Below are positions 1 to 11,181 of a DNA stretch of 11,271 nucleotides, piece by piece. The notes beneath the pieces are model-generated. The model was not told where the DNA came from. It searched no databases and saw nothing but the letters and a program-made list of their open reading frames with translations. This DNA comes from Candidatus Methanoperedentaceae archaeon (GTDB lineage Archaea > Halobacteriota > Methanosarcinia > Methanosarcinales > Methanoperedenaceae): the NCBI GenBank assembly GCA_027371625.1, contig DAHXMQ010000141.1, positions 1-11,271 on the forward strand, given 5' to 3'. How positions within the stretch are numbered: the stretch's first letter is position 1; the number at the start of each line of letters is the position of its first letter. The position numbers were made by a program, and so were the translations under genes.

Positions 1-658
1 TTATATCGAACAGGCGCGGATGGAAATATATCTTTGTTTCAAGCTTTTCCCTGGTATCGATCCGTTCGGCGATGCCGAGTTCCTCTGCTTTTGCATTGAT
101 TTCGTCCTTGTGCTCTATCAGCTCATCGATGACGGATGAAATGCTTATTTCCTTTTTCCCGATGCCGGTATTTGCGTTCTCGAATATGTCAATCACTGCA
201 TATATGTTCTTTACGGGACAGAACCTGAAGTTTTGCCCGACCCATACCGTCAGCTTATCAAGTTCCCTGGCAAGCGCGCTCCTGATGTAATCATGTTTCT
301 TCCTGATGTCCGCGGGTATTGCTCTTTTTATGATCTGCACGAACTCGGTTTCGGACTCGTGCTTTGACATTATGCTGCTTCCTCTAAGATGGTAGCTGAC
401 AACGTAGCCGGAAGGAAGCCTGCCCGACTCTACCTGTATATTCGGATGGGTTCTGGCTATTTCCGTTATGGTATCGGTCTTTTCCTTAGCTTCCTGCAGC
501 ACTGCTGCGGTATTGCCATCGGGAGGAGTTTTTCTCGAACGCTGCCTGAGCGCTTTAAAGGCAGGTTGAGGTTTAAATGTCATGATTTGTGCTGCTGTAT
601 TCTCTTCATGAGCATGTTGTTCTGAAGGCATTATTTCAAGGGAAAGTTGTTTTAACAT
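1..658 (-). CDS. hypothetical protein, partial (C-terminus beyond the window)
   Basis: An open frame of 219 codons reads from the ATG at 658 to the left edge with no stop, so the C-terminus is missing. The start is supported by a Shine-Dalgarno sequence AGGTGA (670-665) six bases upstream. I do not recognise the family. The first 60 or so residues are polar and low in hydrophobics, probably disordered. Residues 70-150 look like a mixed alpha/beta domain (SGYVVSYHLRG, then LTVWVGQNFRFCPVKNIYAV). Residues 165-205 are a charged helical stretch rich in E and K. There is no signal peptide or membrane segment. It starts 36 bases after the small membrane protein gene and is probably the next gene of the same minus-strand transcript. 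No function can be assigned. Confidence 0.8.
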   Translation of the reverse strand, partial: MLKQLSLEIMPSEQHAHEENTAAQIMTFKPQPAFKALRQRSRKTPPDGNTAAVLQEAKEKTDTITEIARTHPNIQVESGRLPSGYVVSYHLRGSSIMSKHESETEFVQIIKRAIPADIRKKHDYIRSALARELDKLTVWVGQNFRFCPVKNIYAVIDIFENANTGIGKKEISISSVIDELIEHKDEINAKAEELGIAERIDTREKLETKIYFHPRLFDI

Positions 659-1535: not shown

Positions 1536-2492
1536 TCACTCTTCCTTGTCAATAGCAGGCGCTACGAATTTATCGAATATCCCCTGCCATTTCGTGGTGT
1601 CTCTTTCTTCCCTGTCTATAGTCTCGTTAATAACTCCCGGTTTCCAGTATTCTTGAATCGCATTTTCGATGAGTTCTCTCGCCGGTTCATCTCCCAGCGA
1701 TTCCCACTGGTACTCGCCCGGTCTTTCAGGATTCTCAGGAAGGCGCCATTTATCAATATGCTCCTTGTTCAATCCAACTCTCACAAATTTCAGAGCTTCG
1801 AGATGCTCTTTCATCTGGCGTTGCATCTCTTCATTGTTCTCAGAATCTATTACTTCCATCCATACCAGATGGATCAGGAACCATTTTCGTATATCTTTGA
1901 GCGCATTTAACGGAATTGTTATTCCCTTGCCTCTACTGCCTCTATCTAAGTGAGGCTCATAGTCGCCGAAGTAGAGGATTATTATGGGTTTTCTGTATTG
2001 TTTATACAGCTCTGCAAGATACTCTGCTATGTCCCACTTGTGGCGTATTGAGGTATCGCCTTTAAAGGGAGCTAATGGAATCCTGTATGGCGAAGTGTAA
2101 TGCTCGAACTGGGAATACATAGCCTGTGCTTCGAACCATATGATCACAATATTTTCCTGGCGTGAGAACACTTCATAGATAGCTTCTTCTTTTCTCAGTG
2201 AGTTGAGCCAATCCCCGATATTCTGAAAACCATGTCCTGCTTTGTAGATTGTTCTCGTATCGTCCACAAGCGTATCCGGTCTCCAGCCGTTCCAGAATTC
2301 CTTTCTTGCACGTGCCGCGTAGCTTTTTATCTTTCCATAGTCGCTTTTCACAAGACCGAGTTTCTGAACGCATTGATAGAAAGCCCATCGCAAGGTCACG
2401 CCATATGGTACTGACTCGATTTCCTCGAGCATCCAGTTAAGGACCTTGGCGGTTTCCGGGGAAGGATTATAGTTTGATGTTGTTTCGGTCAT
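1536..2492 (-). CDS. Toprim-domain protein related to topoisomerase VI A-like proteins
   Basis: This 318-residue protein has the layout of phage and plasmid Toprim proteins distantly related to topoisomerase VI subunit A/Spo11. An N-terminal helix-turn-helix-like part (about 30-70) contains GVTLRWAFYQ, similar to the TLRxxFY segment of that family. The Toprim core follows: IVIIWFEAQAM (about 115-125) supplies the glutamate (E121), and IIILYFGDYEP (170-180) supplies the acidic pair (D177, E179) where most members have DxD followed by PSG. The tail VGLNKEHIDKWRLPENP (239-255) and a WESLGDEP segment are also typical. Such proteins are expected to cut or join DNA or RNA using metal at the acidic cluster, but this subfamily has no firmly known reaction. 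Its ATG overlaps the previous stop by four bases (ATGA), indicating translational coupling. Substitution of the second Asp by Glu is worth noting. Confidence 0.85.
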   Translation of the reverse strand: MTETTSNYNPSPETAKVLNWMLEEIESVPYGVTLRWAFYQCVQKLGLVKSDYGKIKSYAARARKEFWNGWRPDTLVDDTRTIYKAGHGFQNIGDWLNSLRKEEAIYEVFSRQENIVIIWFEAQAMYSQFEHYTSPYRIPLAPFKGDTSIRHKWDIAEYLAELYKQYRKPIIILYFGDYEPHLDRGSRGKGITIPLNALKDIRKWFLIHLVWMEVIDSENNEEMQRQMKEHLEALKFVRVGLNKEHIDKWRLPENPERPGEYQWESLGDEPARELIENAIQEYWKPGVINETIDREERDTTKWQGIFDKFVAPAIDKEE

Positions 2493-3202
2493 AGTCTGAA
2501 AGCTGTGTTCGCTGCCCTGTCCATAGTCTCAAGCAGGGTGGTCGTATCTATGGATATTTGCCGTATTTGGTTATTTACCGGAATCGGCGATCCGTGAATT
2601 ATGAAAGGCATCAAATCCACAGTGTAATTTCGTTTTCCAGTCTCCGGAGCAAGTTCCACGTCCCGCGGGATCGTTCCATCCCTGATGTCAGAATAAAACT
2701 CATCCCCGGCTCTGAGGAGGTCAACGGGATCCCATCTTTTAGTCATATTGTTTCTCAACAGTCTATAAAATGGGTTCCCCTGGTTGGTGTAGAGGTTGTA
2801 TACGGCGAGTGCCATTATCATATGATAGCAAGCATGGCTATCAGATAGACCTCTACAGGTATGATACAGGACGGCTTTCTTTATTCCATGTTTCATGCTT
2901 ACTGCCAGTGTCAGGGTATGCGTGTCCGAATACGACTCTGATTTTATCTCCATCTGCAATTCAAGATTGCTTGAAGGAGTAAGTGGATCTATTATGCCCG
3001 CGCTCCGTAACTGATAAGGCATCATGGTGATGGCTTTCAGTATCGTTTTGCTCACGCCCGGAACGCTTGTTGAATTGCGTGCGCTCTTTGCGTCGGGGTC
3101 ATGCTGGTGCGCAATCGCGATGTCCGGGCAGTAAGGGCTGATATCATTTCCTGGGACGGCAGGAGTCAGCCAGTTAAGATATCTGGTCCATGTATCGGGC
3201 AT
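2489..3202 (-). CDS. hypothetical protein, 237 residues
   Basis: I do not recognise this protein. It is soluble, without a signal peptide or clear membrane helix, and looks like a mixed alpha/beta fold. The N-terminal third is proline-rich and contains an H-x-H pair (AIAHQHDPDAKSARN). The middle holds a beta-rich stretch (DTHTLTLAVSMKHGIKKAVLYHTCRG) and then a helical stretch with several His and Tyr (DSHACYHMIMALAVYNLY). I chose the ATG at 3202 because AGGTGA (3213-3208) lies five bases before it. A GTG at 3211 would begin inside that ribosome site. The stop overlaps the start of the Toprim gene, so the two proteins are probably made in step and may work together. A 105-base gap separates it from the upstream zinc-ribbon gene, so a new transcript could begin here, although I see no strong TATA box. 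Confidence 0.8.
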   Translation of the reverse strand: MPDTWTRYLNWLTPAVPGNDISPYCPDIAIAHQHDPDAKSARNSTSVPGVSKTILKAITMMPYQLRSAGIIDPLTPSSNLELQMEIKSESYSDTHTLTLAVSMKHGIKKAVLYHTCRGLSDSHACYHMIMALAVYNLYTNQGNPFYRLLRNNMTKRWDPVDLLRAGDEFYSDIRDGTIPRDVELAPETGKRNYTVDLMPFIIHGSPIPVNNQIRQISIDTTTLLETMDRAANTAFRL

Positions 3203-3307
3203 TTGCGTCACCTATGTTGAAAGTTATGTTTTGATAACGGTGTATTACTTTTACGGGATTTTCAATTATGTTTGGTACATTGGAGAAAACGGCGTGAATA
3301 TAAGGGA

Positions 3308-5609: not shown

Positions 5610-7040
5610 TTATGTATACCAGAGCAGGCTTTCTCGGGTGATGTTTTTTTTTCTCTCTTTTTTGGTGTGGTGGTTGCAATATCCGGTAAGTTTGCACTGC
5701 TCGCAGTTTGTGATCCTGTCGCAGTACTTTTTGCGAATGTACCAGAGCGCATGGCTTATGATCCCGCGGTTGCCTCCAAGGTACTGGTCAGCAAATTTGC
5801 CAAGCTCAGTTTCATATTCGCCCACGTTCTGGATCAGTCCGATTCTGGCTATGCTTGCGAATCTGATATTGAAAGGACACGCTTCAAGGAACTTATTGTC
5901 AGTGAGTGGGAGATTCCACGGACCTTTGAGCACCATGCCGCGGACGAACTGGCAGGATATTCTCGGTCCTGCGCCATATACGCTTTTCTGGATATCCATT
6001 CTGATAGAATTGCATACCTTCTCCAGGTTCTCCGATTGCGCTTCAAGATGTTTGTTATACAGAATATCGAAGCTGTAATCGTATCGCTTCATGTAATCAG
6101 CCGCTTCAAGGATTGACCTTGGTTGTGCGCTATATCCCATTGAGCTATCACACATCAGCGGGAACTTAGCTTCCGTAAGGATCTCGGCGATAGTATTGAT
6201 CGTTTTTTCGGTTCCAATAGCATCCTCGAGCACAGTGAGTTGGTCCGGCAGGAACAAATTCTTTGCCTCAAGAGCTTTTCTGGCGTTTATGAAAAGTGCT
6301 GCATTGCTTCTTCTATCGAGTACGCTGTAGAACAGCCAGAACCACACGTCGCGTTGATCAAGTAATTTCCCATCAAATCCATGGATGTTAATTTCATGCG
6401 CCCTGATCGGCGCAGATTCACTGAGGTCAGCAAATATATCGGCGATCTTTTTCCTTGCTGTGTGGTCATGTATCCCGGATTCCTGCCAGGCTTTGATACT
6501 TTCAATATCCAATGCAAGCACGGGGTCGGTTATTTTCTGTTTTATGACATCCGTTGCACTGATATCCGGTCTGCGAGTATAGAGGGTCGTGAGGAGGGAA
6601 TTGTGTTGTTGCTGGACTGATGAAGAATCAAATGGAGGCGCAGATTTGATAACTTCTTCGGGGTCGAGTGTGATGGGGTGTATTCGATTTAATCGACACA
6701 GGTTAACCAGTTCATCAGAGAATCCCACCGTGGTTACGAGGGCACAAATTATATTTTTTTCAGGAATATCCATAATGCGTGAGAAGTCTTTCCTGTACCT
6801 GAGCACCTGGTTCTTTACGATAGACGGGTCCTCAACGTATGTGCATTTTATTTCAGCTATAACGCAATTGTCGCTGCATTTATACAGGATGTCTATACGG
6901 CTGTTCGAATTCAATCGTTTCTGATTTTCGATGAATTCGAGTTTACCCGTAAACCTCGGTATTCTAAGAAGGTCAGGGTTCCAGATAAGTGCGATCTCAA
7001 TTTCCCATTCCGGTATGTATATGTTATGTTCATTTGCCAT
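5610..7040 (-). CDS. fusion of NucS/RecB-like nuclease domain and endonuclease III-like HhH Fe-S domain
   Basis: This 476-residue protein is built from two DNA-acting parts. Residues 10-130 look like the NucS/DUF91-type PD-(D/E)XK nuclease: acidic residues near 13-15 (EIEIALIWNPDLL), then SRIDILY (D50), then VIAEIK (E63, K65), and a QVLRYRKDF helix. Residues 220-460 resemble the endonuclease III/HhH-GPD fold: YGAGPRIS (355-362) fits the helix-hairpin-helix, ARIGL (398-402) fits the helix that normally follows the catalytic Asp, and four cysteines C440, C446, C449 and C455 match the Fe-S loop (five residues in the first gap where endonuclease III has six). The canonical catalytic Asp appears replaced (near F390), so the HhH part may bind rather than cleave. 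The start overlaps the PriL stop by 11 bases. The likely role is repair or nicking tied to replication; the domain calls come from motif reading. Confidence 0.8.
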   Translation of the reverse strand: MANEHNIYIPEWEIEIALIWNPDLLRIPRFTGKLEFIENQKRLNSNSRIDILYKCSDNCVIAEIKCTYVEDPSIVKNQVLRYRKDFSRIMDIPEKNIICALVTTVGFSDELVNLCRLNRIHPITLDPEEVIKSAPPFDSSSVQQQHNSLLTTLYTRRPDISATDVIKQKITDPVLALDIESIKAWQESGIHDHTARKKIADIFADLSESAPIRAHEINIHGFDGKLLDQRDVWFWLFYSVLDRRSNAALFINARKALEAKNLFLPDQLTVLEDAIGTEKTINTIAEILTEAKFPLMCDSSMGYSAQPRSILEAADYMKRYDYSFDILYNKHLEAQSENLEKVCNSIRMDIQKSVYGAGPRISCQFVRGMVLKGPWNLPLTDNKFLEACPFNIRFASIARIGLIQNVGEYETELGKFADQYLGGNRGIISHALWYIRKKYCDRITNCEQCKLTGYCNHHTKKERKKNITRESLLWYT

Positions 7041-8439
7041 AGTTTTTATTGCTTCTATCTAGCATCAATTCCTTCTTCTTTTCATAATATCTGTGCGGCA
7101 TCCTGAGTCCGGATATCCAGCAGCGCGTGCAGTTCTCGTATCCAATGCAGTAGGGAGCGAAGCCATTGATGCCGTAGCAGTATTTCGGTTCGTTCGTGTA
7201 CGGTTCGAGCAGCGAGTTCAACTGATATCTGCTGTAGTCCCGGTCGAAATCCGGTACTCCTATTTTCTTTTCGATTATATCAATGCACTGTTCTACACTG
7301 TAGAACCACATCAGCGTGGAGAACATTGCTGCGCGCATCTGGTGCGGTAGAGCTTTTTCTTTGACTGCGCGGCTGAAACATGGGAACACCATGAGGCTAT
7401 TGAAGTCGTCTATGCTCGACAGCATGATTTTCCTGGGGCGGCTTATTTTTATTAGGTTCCTTTCATTGACCAGTACTTGTAGAACTCCGCACCGGCTTTT
7501 ATTCTGCACGAGCAGCGCAAGCAGTTCGGCAGGCTGCAGGTTAACAAGTCTGCTTCTCACGTCAGTTTCCCACAATGCTGCAGGGCGGTAGCTCATAACG
7601 TTGTTTTTTAATCTGTTTGCCGTTATGAGTTCGTTCAAGCTTCCTGAAGCTTCAAGAGCGTTGTTGATGAATTCCATCGCAGCGTAAGCTTCAATATCCG
7701 CATCAGGAATATGTTCGCTGTTCAGTACCCAGGGTCCGTGGAAGTTCACGATGGATTTAAGAACTTCGTTGAATATGCGGGTTTCAGAGGCGAACTTGGT
7801 TTTAACGGGATATGGAAGCGATTTATCGACGGCTTCAACAAGCGCCCAAAAAACCCGTTTCGAATACGTTTCAAAATGGCGCTTAAAAGAACTTGGAGGT
7901 ACACGAACGTGTTTTGACTTTATCTCGATGTCGGGCGACACAAGAAAGCCGCTCGCCGCTTTCAGCGGGATTACAGCGCATCCGTTCTCTATCCTTGCTT
8001 CGGGTGTATTGTATATCGCTTCGAGCATCCCAGAGCGCTGTGCCTGCGCTGGGATATGAAAATCTAATTCCGGGGAACCAGCAGTATTCGCGATAATGTC
8101 AGGCAGCGCCGGCAGTCTTGTGCCGTGGTACTCAAGCAGCAGGTTTTCGAACAGTTTCAGCGTGCGTTCTGTGAGTTTAGAGAAATTCGTCTCTTTAGAG
8201 CGCCACCCCGCTATGCCTGCAATGGCTGCAAGCCTCTGTGGAGTTCCAAGTTCTTCGAATTCCAGAGGTTTACCGGCTTTTCCCATGCAGCAGAGAAGGT
8301 AGTGTTCCACAAGCCCGATAATCTCATTCGTTTTCAATCCCTTGAGTCCAGTTGCCATTGCTTCTACAGTGGCGTTGGCTTCCATGCGGTGAGCGAATAT
8401 CACCGGGTTTGAAGACGGTTGGCAGGTATTTTCTATCAT
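7030..8439 (-). CDS. priL: DNA primase large subunit-like protein (PriL) with C-terminal Fe-S domain
   Basis: This 469-residue protein is the likely partner of the PriS encoded just upstream. The C-terminal third matches the archaeal and eukaryotic PriL Fe-S domain: FPCFSR (C354), then LPHQMRAAMFSTLMWF, then VPDFDRDYSRYQL, then cysteines C421, C431, C437 and C440 (more than the four needed for a 4Fe-4S cluster). In the family this domain helps start primer synthesis. The first 340 residues are helical and unlike ordinary short archaeal PriL in sequence as far as I can tell, so they may be a divergent PriL N-domain or an addition. The ATG overlaps the PriS stop by four bases (ATGA), so subunits are made together. 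The family call is good for the C-terminus and weaker for the rest. Confidence 0.82.
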   Translation of the reverse strand: MIENTCQPSSNPVIFAHRMEANATVEAMATGLKGLKTNEIIGLVEHYLLCCMGKAGKPLEFEELGTPQRLAAIAGIAGWRSKETNFSKLTERTLKLFENLLLEYHGTRLPALPDIIANTAGSPELDFHIPAQAQRSGMLEAIYNTPEARIENGCAVIPLKAASGFLVSPDIEIKSKHVRVPPSSFKRHFETYSKRVFWALVEAVDKSLPYPVKTKFASETRIFNEVLKSIVNFHGPWVLNSEHIPDADIEAYAAMEFINNALEASGSLNELITANRLKNNVMSYRPAALWETDVRSRLVNLQPAELLALLVQNKSRCGVLQVLVNERNLIKISRPRKIMLSSIDDFNSLMVFPCFSRAVKEKALPHQMRAAMFSTLMWFYSVEQCIDIIEKKIGVPDFDRDYSRYQLNSLLEPYTNEPKYCYGINGFAPYCIGYENCTRCWISGLRMPHRYYEKKKELMLDRSNKNYGK

Positions 8440-9323
8440 ATTACTTTATATTGCCAGTTCGGTCTGGCGATTATTTCTTCAATATCGTATGGATGGAACA
8501 GTTCCTGTACTCTTCTATTTACTCCGCCGTGAAGGCTTCCCGGAAACCTGAGTATTCTTCTTGCATCTATCGTAACCATGGTGTCTATGGGTATCTGCTT
8601 GTGATTGTCAAGCTGCTTTGCTACGAAATCTCTTGCGGGTCTTGAGTAATTCCAGGCATCAGGGTCGGTGACGTGTACGTGTGCTCCCTGTCCGCTGTAA
8701 TAAACGTGAATATCATCCGAGGAAAACCCCCATTCTATGAGTGTTCTTTTCAATTCAAAGGCTTTGTTAATGGCTATCTGAAGGCAGTTAAAGCAGTAAA
8801 GGTATCCTTTTTCAGGGTCTTTAATATGCTGTGGATGCACCGGCGGTATGCTGCCGATCATGCGGCGCCAGCTTATTACTTCTGCATCATCGGCATCGGG
8901 CTTCAATCCTGGATGATGTTCGCACATACCAGCCATTGCAACGTTCTTTGCGTCAATGTCGAAAGCAAGAAGCCAACTTTCATCTTTCATTTTAAGCGAG
9001 AAGTATAAGCTTTCTATTTGGCTGTTCTCTACCACGGCAGCTATAGGATCGAACCGCTTGAAATCCAGCAGCAGGTTCTGCAGCTTTTTAAGACCTTCTA
9101 TGTTATGGTTCGTCCTACGAAGGAAATCTTTCTCTTTTACGGCGCTTCCTTCCACAGTCTTGACTGGTTTCTGGAAAGCAAAGGCATATTCCATAGACGA
9201 AGATTTTGTTATGTACTCAGGCAGGCTGTTCCATGTCGTAGGGAATATATGTTTATAGTAAGACTGTATTTCCTTAGCGGTCGAAGGACGCCAGTCCGAG
9301 GATGAGATATCAAAGGGGTTCAT
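8436..9323 (-). CDS. priS: DNA primase small (catalytic) subunit PriS
   Basis: This 295-residue protein is the catalytic primase subunit that makes RNA or DNA primers. All hallmark motifs are present: the metal-binding FDIDA (D122, D124); the nucleotide-binding SGQGAHVHV (210-218); IDTMVT with the third Asp (about D247); and RRILRFPGSLHG (255-266). C134, H136 or H137, C177 and C180 fit the zinc-binding knuckle usual in archaeal PriS. It is shorter than many chromosomal archaeal PriS proteins, which, with its setting, suggests an element-borne copy. The ATG at 9323 has no clear ribosome site; a TATA box about 35 bases upstream would give a very short leader. It is the first gene of the primase operon. 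Confidence 0.93.
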   Translation of the reverse strand: MNPFDISSSDWRPSTAKEIQSYYKHIFPTTWNSLPEYITKSSSMEYAFAFQKPVKTVEGSAVKEKDFLRRTNHNIEGLKKLQNLLLDFKRFDPIAAVVENSQIESLYFSLKMKDESWLLAFDIDAKNVAMAGMCEHHPGLKPDADDAEVISWRRMIGSIPPVHPQHIKDPEKGYLYCFNCLQIAINKAFELKRTLIEWGFSSDDIHVYYSGQGAHVHVTDPDAWNYSRPARDFVAKQLDNHKQIPIDTMVTIDARRILRFPGSLHGGVNRRVQELFHPYDIEEIIARPNWQYKVI

Positions 9324-9857: not shown

Positions 9858-9889
9858 TCAGACGTATTAGTCTCCATTTCTTAGATAAT

Positions 9890-9920
9890 GTATCAATCCC
9901 ACAAGGGGTGGACGTCAAAC
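9890..9920 (-). repeat. CRISPR repeat, second from leader
   Basis: A 31-base repeat identical to 9956-9986. It contains GACGTC and a CCAC/GTGG short stem. Confidence 0.88.
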
Positions 9921-9955
9921 TTTGACCTTAAACCATTCATTGATTCAACAAAAAA

Positions 9956-9986
9956 GTATCAATCCCACAAGGGGTGGACGTCAAAC
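9956..9986 (-). repeat. CRISPR repeat, leader-proximal
   Basis: A 31-base repeat identical to 9890-9920. It is the first repeat after the leader. Confidence 0.88.
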
Positions 9987-10091
9987 AAGGCACATCAAGC
10001 ACGGCACCGGTCTTCATGAAAAAACTATCAAACAAAACGTTTATATTTAACCTTGGTTTCGTATATTAAGTTTCTGGTTGTTATTGGGGGG
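9987..10091 (-). promoter_or_regulatory. CRISPR leader with TATA promoter
   Basis: This 105-base segment between cas2 and the first repeat carries, on the minus strand, TTAAATATAAA (10050-10040), a good TATA box that would start transcription near 10015, about 30 bases before the first repeat. A second TATA-like ATATAC lies further upstream (about 10060-10070). It fits a leader in place and orientation; integration-site motifs are unknown. Confidence 0.65.
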
Positions 10092-10364
10092 TCAGATAAA
10101 GTTTGATTTCTCTGAAGCACTATCTCCGATAGCTGTCAATTGTAAGAATTTTTTATCTTCAACAGTCCATATACGAACATTTTCACCATCAGTAACCATA
10201 TCCTCCAGAGTATCTTTGAGTATTGTAAATTGTGTTGGTTTAAGTTCCCCTTCAAAAACGCTATTTTGAACCCATGTGAGGTATTGCCTACAGAAGGTCT
10301 TGAATAGATTTGTCCTATTGAACTGGACATCGTAAGCCAGCACAACATACAATTTAATCACCAT
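10092..10364 (-). CDS. cas2: CRISPR-associated protein Cas2
   Basis: This 90-residue protein is Cas2, the small dimeric partner that bridges two Cas1 dimers during spacer integration. It has the beta-strand start YVVLAYDV with the conserved Asp (D12), the family signature YLTWVQNSVFEGEL (28-41), and a final strand region ending near GD. Length is normal for the family. The ATG overlaps the cas1 stop by 11 bases, so the two are translated together. The leader and array follow directly, so this is a self-contained adaptation locus. The signature is most like Cas2 of type I-B and type III systems. Confidence 0.95.
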   Translation of the reverse strand: MVIKLYVVLAYDVQFNRTNLFKTFCRQYLTWVQNSVFEGELKPTQFTILKDTLEDMVTDGENVRIWTVEDKKFLQLTAIGDSASEKSNFI

Positions 10365-11118
10365 CAGGTATTTTTATAGGATCGTATTTCTCTATCCCTT
10401 CGATATGTTTGGCGTATTTATGCATCTCAAGCAGAAGTAAGTGCCTGTGAGATACTTTTCTCTTTAACTTTTTATGAAAAATTGTATGTTCCAGCCATTT
10501 ATCCCAATATTCCAGAAAAATTTTCTTCCCGTTTTCATTCAATAATATTCCCCCACCAACCTCGTTGAAATGCACTTGATTTGGCTGTAATATGCCCTCT
10601 TTCACAATTTGATAAAGAAACCGGTCAACAATTCCAGGTTTAAAAACCTCCGACAAATCCAGAGATAAAGCAAACCTTCCTGCGGCTGGTTCATGATAGA
10701 ATGGAATTGTAATATTTACAGAAGTTTTTCTTGCCGCCGTAATTATTGATGTATATAGCAAAGTATTCCCGAAAGAGATCAGACTATTCCCGTAATTGCT
10801 TGGGGGTCGTATCTCTCTTCGATCAATCTTGAATTCATCTGGCAACAGCGCATCAAAACGATTATAGTAATCTCGGCGCATGCGAGCCTCGATCAACATC
10901 ATATCCTGAATGGATTTTACATCATTTAAATCGCTATCGTTCAAAAAAGACGTGCTATTTCCCTCTATATGACCAAGGAACGCACGCATATTGTTCTCAA
11001 CACCTTTAACTAGTATTCGGGAAAGCTCCAATCGTTTTTGAATATCCGAATAAACAAGGCTTTGTTTAATAGTCAGATCTCCACTGAAATAATGTTCTTT
11101 CGGCCAGTATGTGCCCAT
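10354..11118 (-). CDS. cas1: CRISPR-associated Cas1, catalytic domain only (N-terminal domain missing)
   Basis: This 254-residue protein is the integrase Cas1 but lacks the usual N-terminal beta domain of about 80 residues. Its start, MGTYWPKEHYFSG, lines up with the linker that begins the helical domain in type I-B Cas1 (about TGSFYPRE). The catalytic domain looks complete: IEARMRRDYY (E77), PPSNYGNSLISFGNTLLY, YHEPAAGRF (H142), LSLDLSEVFKP (acidic D154/E157), GGILLNENG, and the basic tail HKKLKRKVSHR. In known Cas1 the missing domain forms the dimer interface and helps hold Cas2. An in-frame TGA lies just upstream of the ATG, so no longer frame exists here. A TATA region about 30 bases upstream shows that this short form has its own promoter. 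It may be a decayed gene, a natural short form, or one half of a split protein. Confidence 0.9.
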   Translation of the reverse strand: MGTYWPKEHYFSGDLTIKQSLVYSDIQKRLELSRILVKGVENNMRAFLGHIEGNSTSFLNDSDLNDVKSIQDMMLIEARMRRDYYNRFDALLPDEFKIDRREIRPPSNYGNSLISFGNTLLYTSIITAARKTSVNITIPFYHEPAAGRFALSLDLSEVFKPGIVDRFLYQIVKEGILQPNQVHFNEVGGGILLNENGKKIFLEYWDKWLEHTIFHKKLKRKVSHRHLLLLEMHKYAKHIEGIEKYDPIKIPDGD

Positions 11119-11181
11119 ATATAGTCAAATGCTAAACTTATACTAAATAAATATATAGTATAAGTATCAATTTATACGTCA
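11118..11181. promoter_or_regulatory. divergent promoter with perfect inverted repeat between cas1 and the plus-strand gene
   Basis: A perfect inverted repeat, ACTTATACTA (11136-11145) and TAGTATAAGT (11156-11165), has 10-bp arms around a 10-base A/T core AATAAATATA. That core lies 27 to 36 bases from both starts (ATG at 11118 on minus, 11181 on plus), so it probably serves as TATA region for both genes, giving near-leaderless messages. The symmetric arms suit a dimeric repressor. Each arm is followed by 15 or 17 bases and then ATGGG(C/T)AC, so the two start regions mirror each other. Confidence 0.6.

What the first reader, a model, noticed from the sequence alone, without database searches (positions are those of the whole stretch)
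5610..9323. Primase operon with a nuclease-HhH fusion as third member
PriS, PriL and a NucS-like nuclease fused to an endonuclease III-like HhH/Fe-S domain overlap end to end (4 and 11 bases), implying stoichiometric production and probably a common complex. I know of no standard archaeal operon of this composition. A lesion- or mismatch-directed nuclease linked to the primase could make nicks for replication start, process primers, or repair ahead of the fork.
Basis: partly seen in the sequence, partly recalled or inferred. Interest (0 to 1): 0.7.

Follow-up and report, generated by a model that had tools for sequence, protein, structure and literature searches.

The report
Plasmid primase genes plus cargo nuclease
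A DNA fragment, probably from a plasmid of a methane-oxidising archaeon, carries a common plasmid primase gene pair followed directly by a rare nuclease made of two DNA-repair folds, which looks like added cargo from a defence-type gene family rather than a built-in part of the primase.

Summary
In detail: PriS (8436-9323), a PriL-type protein (7030-8439) and a 476-residue fusion (5610-7040), all minus strand, overlap by 4 and 11 bases. The proposed bond with the primase is not supported. The PriL-type gene occurs in 25 other places of 20 genomes; PriS was found beside it in 19, in 16 with the same 4-base overlap; none of the 25 shows the nuclease in the 1.4-1.5 kb read downstream. Five other nuclease loci with readable flanks show no primase but have defence-type neighbours: radical SAM, dCTP deaminase-like, TIR, HpaII restriction, pAgo. 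In plasmid pMETHO01 the gene after PriL weakly resembles one lying beyond the nuclease here, which suggests insertion. Half of the gene neighbours in this window overlap, so overlap says little about a complex. Most likely: a Methanoperedens plasmid fragment with cargo, an apparently undescribed, mainly archaeal NucS-EndoIII fusion, beside a truncated CRISPR adaptation locus. Recruitment to the primase stays possible but unproven.

The parts
8436..9323 (-). PriS-like primase catalytic subunit (295 aa), plasmid-type
   Evidence: Pfam PF01896 E 1.3e-4, below cut-off; TIGR00335 E 3.3e-13, below cut-off; profile to PDB PriS E 4.9e-17; D122, D124, S210-G-Q-G-x-H215 invariant in 20 rows
7030..8439 (-). 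PriL-type / primase-associated protein (469 aa), overlaps PriS by 4 bases
   Evidence: NF038197 E 1.8e-7 and PriL NF002588 E 1.4e-4, both below cut-off; C354, C431, C437 invariant and C421 nearly so in 12 rows including haloarchaeal plasmids
5610..7040 (-). NucS-EndoIII fusion (476 aa), overlaps PriL by 11 bases
   Evidence: 106 proteins at E <= 1e-3, window included; model pLDDT 91.6; fold matches
6657..7013 (-). NucS/EndoMS-like PD-(D/E)XK nuclease domain (residues 10-128); D50, E63, K65, Q78, Y82
5652..6470 (-). Endonuclease III-like HhH/Fe-S domain (residues 191-463); EndoIII lysine position is Arg360; Cys440/446/449/455
2489..3211 (-). ORF with weak similarity to the two pMETHO01 genes that directly follow PriL there
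   Evidence: blastp E 1e-6 (27% over 62 aa) and 8e-6 (26% over 152 aa) to L042 ORFs
2..658 (-). ORF (cut by contig end) with pMETHO01 homologue
   Evidence: blastp 40% over 169 aa, E 3e-29
10354..11118 (-). cas1 (type I-B like) lacking its first 74 residues
   Evidence: Pfam Cas1 E 4e-46; TIGR03641 259.3 of 304.1 bits; 328-aa copies in L082, L083; DNA homology to them ends at 11121
10092..10364 (-). cas2
   Evidence: Pfam PF09827 E 1.1e-16
9890..9986 (-). two-repeat CRISPR array (31-nt repeats 9890-9920 and 9956-9986, one 35-nt spacer)
   Evidence: repeat identical to arrays in G014 and G046

Best explanation
The contig is a piece of a Methanoperedens plasmid or integrated plasmid-like element. 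Its PriS + PriL-type pair is the primase module that such archaeal plasmids share and that primes plasmid replication (role recalled from the families). Directly downstream, between PriL and the next gene shared with plasmid pMETHO01, the element has gained a NucS-EndoIII fusion nuclease, probably co-transcribed with the primase because of where it landed. The fusion belongs to a mainly archaeal family that I found among defence genes elsewhere. Inferred working: the EndoIII-fold half binds DNA and tests it for an abnormal base (deaminated, mismatched or modified), and the PD-(D/E)XK half then cuts. As cargo this would act on foreign or damaged DNA and protect the plasmid or its host. Shown: gene order, folds, conserved residues, separate occurrence of the two modules in the loci read. 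Inferred: plasmid nature of this contig, insertion, DNA target, cutting, defence or repair role.
For: PriL-type gene in 25 other places of 20 genomes: PriS beside it in 19, with a 4-base overlap in 16, and the nuclease in 0 of 25 in the 1.4-1.5 kb downstream; also G003, pair 6 bases apart, no nuclease. The MAG has another, chromosomal-type PriL match (G000:C234). PriS relatives occur in 78 plasmid records; one PriL relative, P0166, is named a plasmid gene; HMp plasmids of Methanoperedens carry a primase (PMC9674854, passages). pMETHO01 keeps PriS, PriL and a distant 2489-3211 homologue contiguous, the latter overlapping PriL by 43 bases, and a 2-658 homologue further on, all on one strand. Nuclease relatives: 0 of 5 loci with primase; a radical SAM gene next to it or one gene away in 4 of 5 (L001, L084 by Pfam; L002, L003 by reading); ThsB-type TIR in L003 and L084, HpaII restriction and C5 methylase in L084, pAgo in L004. 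The window nuclease groups with Methanoperedens relatives, SH-aLRT 95.
Against: The nuclease keeps its catalytic residues, begins inside priL and is tightly placed, unlike most third genes: only 2 of 25 other places have an overlapping same-strand ORF there. Its long branch (0.95) may mean a changed role. PADLOC has no model matching the nuclease, and defence neighbours do not prove a defence role. Homology to pMETHO01 at the insertion border is weak (26-27% identity). In 6 of 25 places PriS was not found beside PriL; in two of these (L095, L098) the end of a PriS lies about 1.4 kb upstream, and some places are on megabase contigs, so the pair is not strictly a plasmid unit. The MAG is fragmentary (429 contigs, 68.75% complete).
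Confidence: 0.66

Rival explanations
1. The fusion is a real third subunit or partner of the plasmid primase: it cuts at mismatched or deaminated bases near new primers, or nicks DNA so that priming can start.
For: Overlap of 11 bases with priL; same strand; intact active site; long branch suggests a new role; such tight third genes are rare after PriL (2 of 25). There is a precedent in archaeal mobile elements for a PD-(D/E)XK endonuclease family associated with a viral primase (arCOG09441 with arCOG07809, PMC4158269, passage), though of other families.
Against: 0 of 25 other PriL-type places and 0 of 5 other nuclease loci show the pair; 7 of 14 chosen gene neighbours in this window overlap, so overlap is the local norm.
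Confidence: 0.15
2. The fusion is an ordinary DNA-repair enzyme (deaminated-base or mismatch repair) rather than a defence protein, carried by plasmid and chromosomes alike.
For: NucS and EndoIII are both repair folds; NucS enzymes are reported to cut at deaminated bases and mismatches (PMC10140301, passages); a Vsr mismatch endonuclease gene is near one relative.
Against: Sparse distribution: 4 full-length matches in 99 related genomes and only the window's own in a phylum sample of 392, and repeated defence-type neighbours.
Confidence: 0.14
3. The whole stretch is a CRISPR adaptation cassette with its own primase, like the CRISPR-associated primase-polymerases (CAPPs), with the nuclease trimming prespacers.
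For: cas1, cas2 and a CRISPR array lie upstream on the same strand; CAPPs are known next to cas1-cas2 (PMC8211822, passages).
Against: cas1 lacks 74 N-terminal residues, and homology to two fuller loci stops at 11121 on one side and at the last repeat on the other; 768 bases separate cas2 from PriS, with the array between; no cas gene is listed in the seven annotated plasmid stretches with the primase that I read (PLSDB gene tables are incomplete).
Confidence: 0.05

Closest known systems
Haloarchaeal and methanoarchaeal plasmid PriS + primase-associated protein pair (NCBIfam NF038197; pMETHO01; HMp plasmids)
   Same: Gene order, short overlap (4 bases in 16 of 19 other pairs), conserved PriS motifs and PriL-type cysteines
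   Different: No nuclease third gene in the stretch read at any of 25 other places
NucS/EndoMS mismatch endonuclease
   Same: Nuclease domain fold and D/E/K plus Q/Y residues
   Different: Nuclease domain is at the N-terminus; the NucS N-terminal recognition domain is absent and an EndoIII-like domain follows instead
Endonuclease III (Nth) family
   Same: Nearly the whole fold, HhH motif, Cys cluster at the end
   Different: The position aligned to the catalytic Lys is Arg in 104 of 104 rows with a letter; fused to a nuclease
CRISPR-associated primase-polymerases (CAPP)
   Same: A primase gene lies near cas1-cas2
   Different: PriS/PriL-type pair of a plasmid family; cas1 truncated; 768-base gap
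Long NucS proteins of Antarctic soil metagenomes (PMC10140301, passages)
   Same: NucS-type nuclease in a protein longer than usual
   Different: There the nuclease is C-terminal, the extension is N-terminal, and no added domain was detected

Membership tests
Archaeo-eukaryotic primase, PriS | DxD and SGxGxH catalytic motifs (motifs recalled) | tested here: met
   D122, D124, S210, G211, G213, H215 invariant in 20 rows
Archaeo-eukaryotic primase, PriS | Curated cut-offs of PF01896 and TIGR00335 | tested here: not met
   22.8 of 26.8 bits; 49.7 of 143.5 bits: a divergent, plasmid-type PriS, so called PriS-like
PriL / primase-associated protein | Four conserved cysteines of the C-terminal Fe-S domain (role recalled) | tested here: met
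   C354, C431, C437 invariant, C421 nearly, across 12 rows; cluster binding itself not tested
PriL / primase-associated protein | Curated NCBIfam cut-offs | tested here: not met
   NF038197 30.2 of 100 bits; NF002588 21.4 of 439 bits: called PriL-type only
Plasmid PriS + primase-associated pair | PriS directly followed by PriL-type gene with short overlap | tested here: met
   -4 in the window and in 16 of 19 other places where PriS was found beside it
NucS/EndoMS | RecB-like nuclease fold with D, ExK and QxxxY | tested here: met
NucS/EndoMS | N-terminal DNA-binding/recognition domain before the nuclease | tested here: not met
   The nuclease fold starts at residue 10
Endonuclease III | EndoIII fold with HhH | tested here: met
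Endonuclease III | Catalytic Lys of the lyase (Lys120, recalled) | tested here: not met
   Arg360 at the aligned HhH position by reading; Arg in 104 of 104 rows with a letter
Endonuclease III | Catalytic Asp (Asp138, recalled) | tested here: inconclusive
   Asp381 is the likely equivalent, Asp in 85 of 103 rows with a letter; alignment unsure here
CAPP CRISPR adaptation operon | Intact cas1-cas2 in one operon with the primase | tested here: not met
   cas1 lacks 74 residues; 768-base gap
Known anti-phage defence system | Match to a PADLOC model | tested here: not met
   No PADLOC match at E 0.1 for the fusion, PriS or PriL

The most novel reading that the evidence does not exclude
The plasmid has recruited a defence-derived NucS-EndoIII nuclease as a third component of its primase, so that priming and base-lesion- or modification-directed DNA cutting are coupled: the plasmid copies its own DNA while cutting chemically different rival DNA.
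Probability: 0.12. Interest if true: 0.8.

Novelty: new variant of a known kind. Interest (0 to 1): 0.47.

Why it matters
The fusion joins in one chain a NucS-type nuclease and an EndoIII-type base-reading fold. I saw no description of it in the listings of six searches or in the passages of the five papers that I opened, and no Pfam, PHROG, NCBIfam or PADLOC model passes its cut-off or E 0.05 on the window copy. About 100 relatives, most of them unnamed metagenome proteins, the named ones mainly archaeal, make it a concrete, expressible candidate for a lesion- or modification-directed defence or repair nuclease. The case also shows that short gene overlaps in compact plasmids should not be read as evidence of a complex.

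Tried and rejected

Considered and rejected: a stoichiometric complex inferred from overlaps (half of the neighbours overlap); a CRISPR cassette (cas1 truncated); loss of all glycosylase chemistry (Asp381 is mostly kept, so only the Lys change is claimed); calling the radical SAM neighbours viperins (best PADLOC pVip E 1e-9 in L001 and 5e-16 in L084, but they carry a SPASM domain).

Limits: Pfam was run on neighbours of L001, L003 (two genes), L004 and L084 only; L002 and the other L003 neighbours, and Cas4 and other cas genes in L082 and L083, were judged by reading. The third-gene and nuclease tests around PriL used loci with 1.4-1.5 kb after PriL and ORFs of at least 60-70 aa. Nuclease loci are only five besides the window; L004 holds only the C-terminal half, with a stop inside the match. 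Primase absence near them was tested with the plasmid-type profiles A2 and A6 at E 0.01. The tree is a quick one with long branches. In the residue counts all 106 rows were used; one search drops 7 rows that cover one half poorly. In the overlap count I kept 15 minus-strand ORFs of the 43 listed.
Full report
WHAT IS THERE. The window is one whole contig (G000:C247) of a fragmentary MAG. Three same-genus genomes hold the same contigs, by length, as the records L001 and L002 (named Methanoperedens) and L003 (named uncultured archaeon), so the genus is inferred to be Methanoperedens. The fusion's ATG is the only common start codon before the conserved IPEWEIE motif, which begins eight residues later (by reading), so the 11-base overlap is likely real.

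THE PRIMASE PAIR. tblastn finds PriS relatives in 78 plasmid records, mostly haloarchaeal; in six haloarchaeal stretches read, the next gene is annotated primase-associated protein in five and hypothetical in one. In 392 genomes of the phylum sample, 21 had the PriL-type gene at E <= 1e-10, in 26 places, one being the window; some are on megabase contigs. PriS was found beside it in 19 of the 25 others, with exactly 4 bases of overlap in 16 (the rest -38, 142 and 241); in two of the other six (L095, L098) the end of a PriS lies about 1.4 kb upstream, and in four none was found in the stretch held. The nuclease was found in 0 of 25, by profile and by tblastn. An overlapping same-strand third gene occurs at 2 of 25 others, both on what is by coordinates pMETHO01, and they are different genes. 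One further copy, G003, has the pair 6 bases apart and no nuclease. The MAG itself also has a chromosomal-type PriL match.

WHERE THE FUSION LIVES ELSEWHERE. It is sparse: 7 of 99 related genomes match, 4 of them full length including the window's own, and 3 only with the nuclease half; 10 of 392 in an evenly drawn phylum sample that leaves out most of the genus, only the window's own full length; 20 of 227 in the phylum of L004, two of them long matches. Five loci besides the window have readable flanks (6 to 19 kb in all). None matches the plasmid-type PriS or PriL profile. L001, L002 and L003 share a block: nuclease, then on the other strand a radical SAM protein and a dCTP deaminase-like protein (Pfam run for L001 only). 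L003 also has a ThsB-type TIR and a SLATT protein. L004 has a pAgo-type protein. L084 has a HpaII restriction endonuclease, a C5 methylase, a Vsr endonuclease, a TIR protein, an Nmad3 protein and, one gene from the fusion, a radical SAM protein. This is a defence-island setting, though the fusion itself matches no PADLOC model and neighbours do not prove function.

HOW THE TWO MET. In pMETHO01 the order is PriS, PriL, then a gene weakly related to window 2489-3211 (27% over 62 aa) overlapping PriL by 43 bases, a second such gene, and later a gene related to window 2-658. In the window the same order and strand hold, but the nuclease and several small ORFs lie between PriL and 2489-3211. The simplest reading is insertion of cargo at this point. 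The window nuclease falls with relatives named or inferred Methanoperedens (SH-aLRT 95) on a long branch (0.95), so the donor was probably a Methanoperedens island and the copy has diverged; a long branch also fits a changed role, which keeps the rival alive. So does the precedent of another PD-(D/E)XK family associated with a viral primase in archaeal islands (PMC4158269, passage). The overlaps do not decide: 7 of 14 chosen neighbours in this window overlap.

THE OTHER SIDE OF THE PRIMASE. Upstream lie cas2, a cas1 that lacks its first 74 residues, and a two-repeat array. DNA homology of 90% (G014) and 88% (G046) to loci with a Cas4-like gene (by reading), a 328-aa Cas1, Cas2 and arrays of 13 and 12 repeats runs from 9890 or 9889 to 11121; the 31-nt repeat is identical. 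So this looks like a broken-off piece of a CRISPR locus, not a CAPP-type operon (compare PMC8211822, passages).

LITERATURE. HMp plasmids of Methanoperedens carry a DNA primase in a seven-gene cluster (PMC9674854, passages). A metagenome study describes longer NucS proteins, extended N-terminally with no added domain, and reports cutting at uracil and abasic sites (PMC10140301, passages). A 2026 survey of archaeal immunity and the 2014 archaeal dark-matter paper have no occurrence of NucS or HhH in their main texts (PMC12988326; PMC4158269; term counts and passages). I saw no paper on a NucS-EndoIII fusion in the listings of six searches; the library holds open-licence papers only. The roles of catalytic residues and of primases, and the organism of 2abk, are recalled.

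VERDICT. The interesting object is the nuclease family.

Noticed in passing
window 9890-11121: Piece of a type I-B-like CRISPR locus: cas1 without its first 74 residues, cas2 and a two-repeat array, 88-90% identical in DNA to fuller loci in G046 and G014 and cut off at both ends.
   Followed up: yes
L082 74-2770 (G014:C200) and L083 8035-10669 (G046:C71): Very similar Cas4-like, Cas1 and Cas2 proteins and identical CRISPR repeat in genomes of two different families of one order, which suggests transfer of the CRISPR locus or a mis-binned contig.
   Followed up: partly
L001 3369-7632, L003 9296-13649: Conserved block: NucS-EndoIII fusion, radical SAM-SPASM, dCTP deaminase-like and a 212-220 aa protein; a candidate defence system.
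   Followed up: partly
P0087, P0089, P0090, P0096, P0102, P0105, P0106: The EndoIII-like half is joined to a strongly diverged N-terminal nuclease-like domain in a second architecture (label PF26915 in the protein table).
   Followed up: partly
L084 (G514:C31): Dense island with HpaII restriction-modification, Vsr, ThsB-type TIR, 8xMP membrane protein, Nmad3 and radical SAM around the fusion.
   Followed up: partly
window 1536-2492: ORF matching a phage DNA topoisomerase family (phrog_6247, E 8e-23), overlapping its upstream neighbour by 4 bases.
   Followed up: no
L115 (G096:C1, second place): A second PriS-PriL-type pair on the contig that is pMETHO01 by coordinates, with a 4-base overlap and another gene overlapping PriL by 8 bases.
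   Followed up: no
L095 (G438:C3) and L098 (G205:C10): The end of a PriS lies about 1.4 kb upstream of PriL, as if something had been inserted between the two genes.
   Followed up: no
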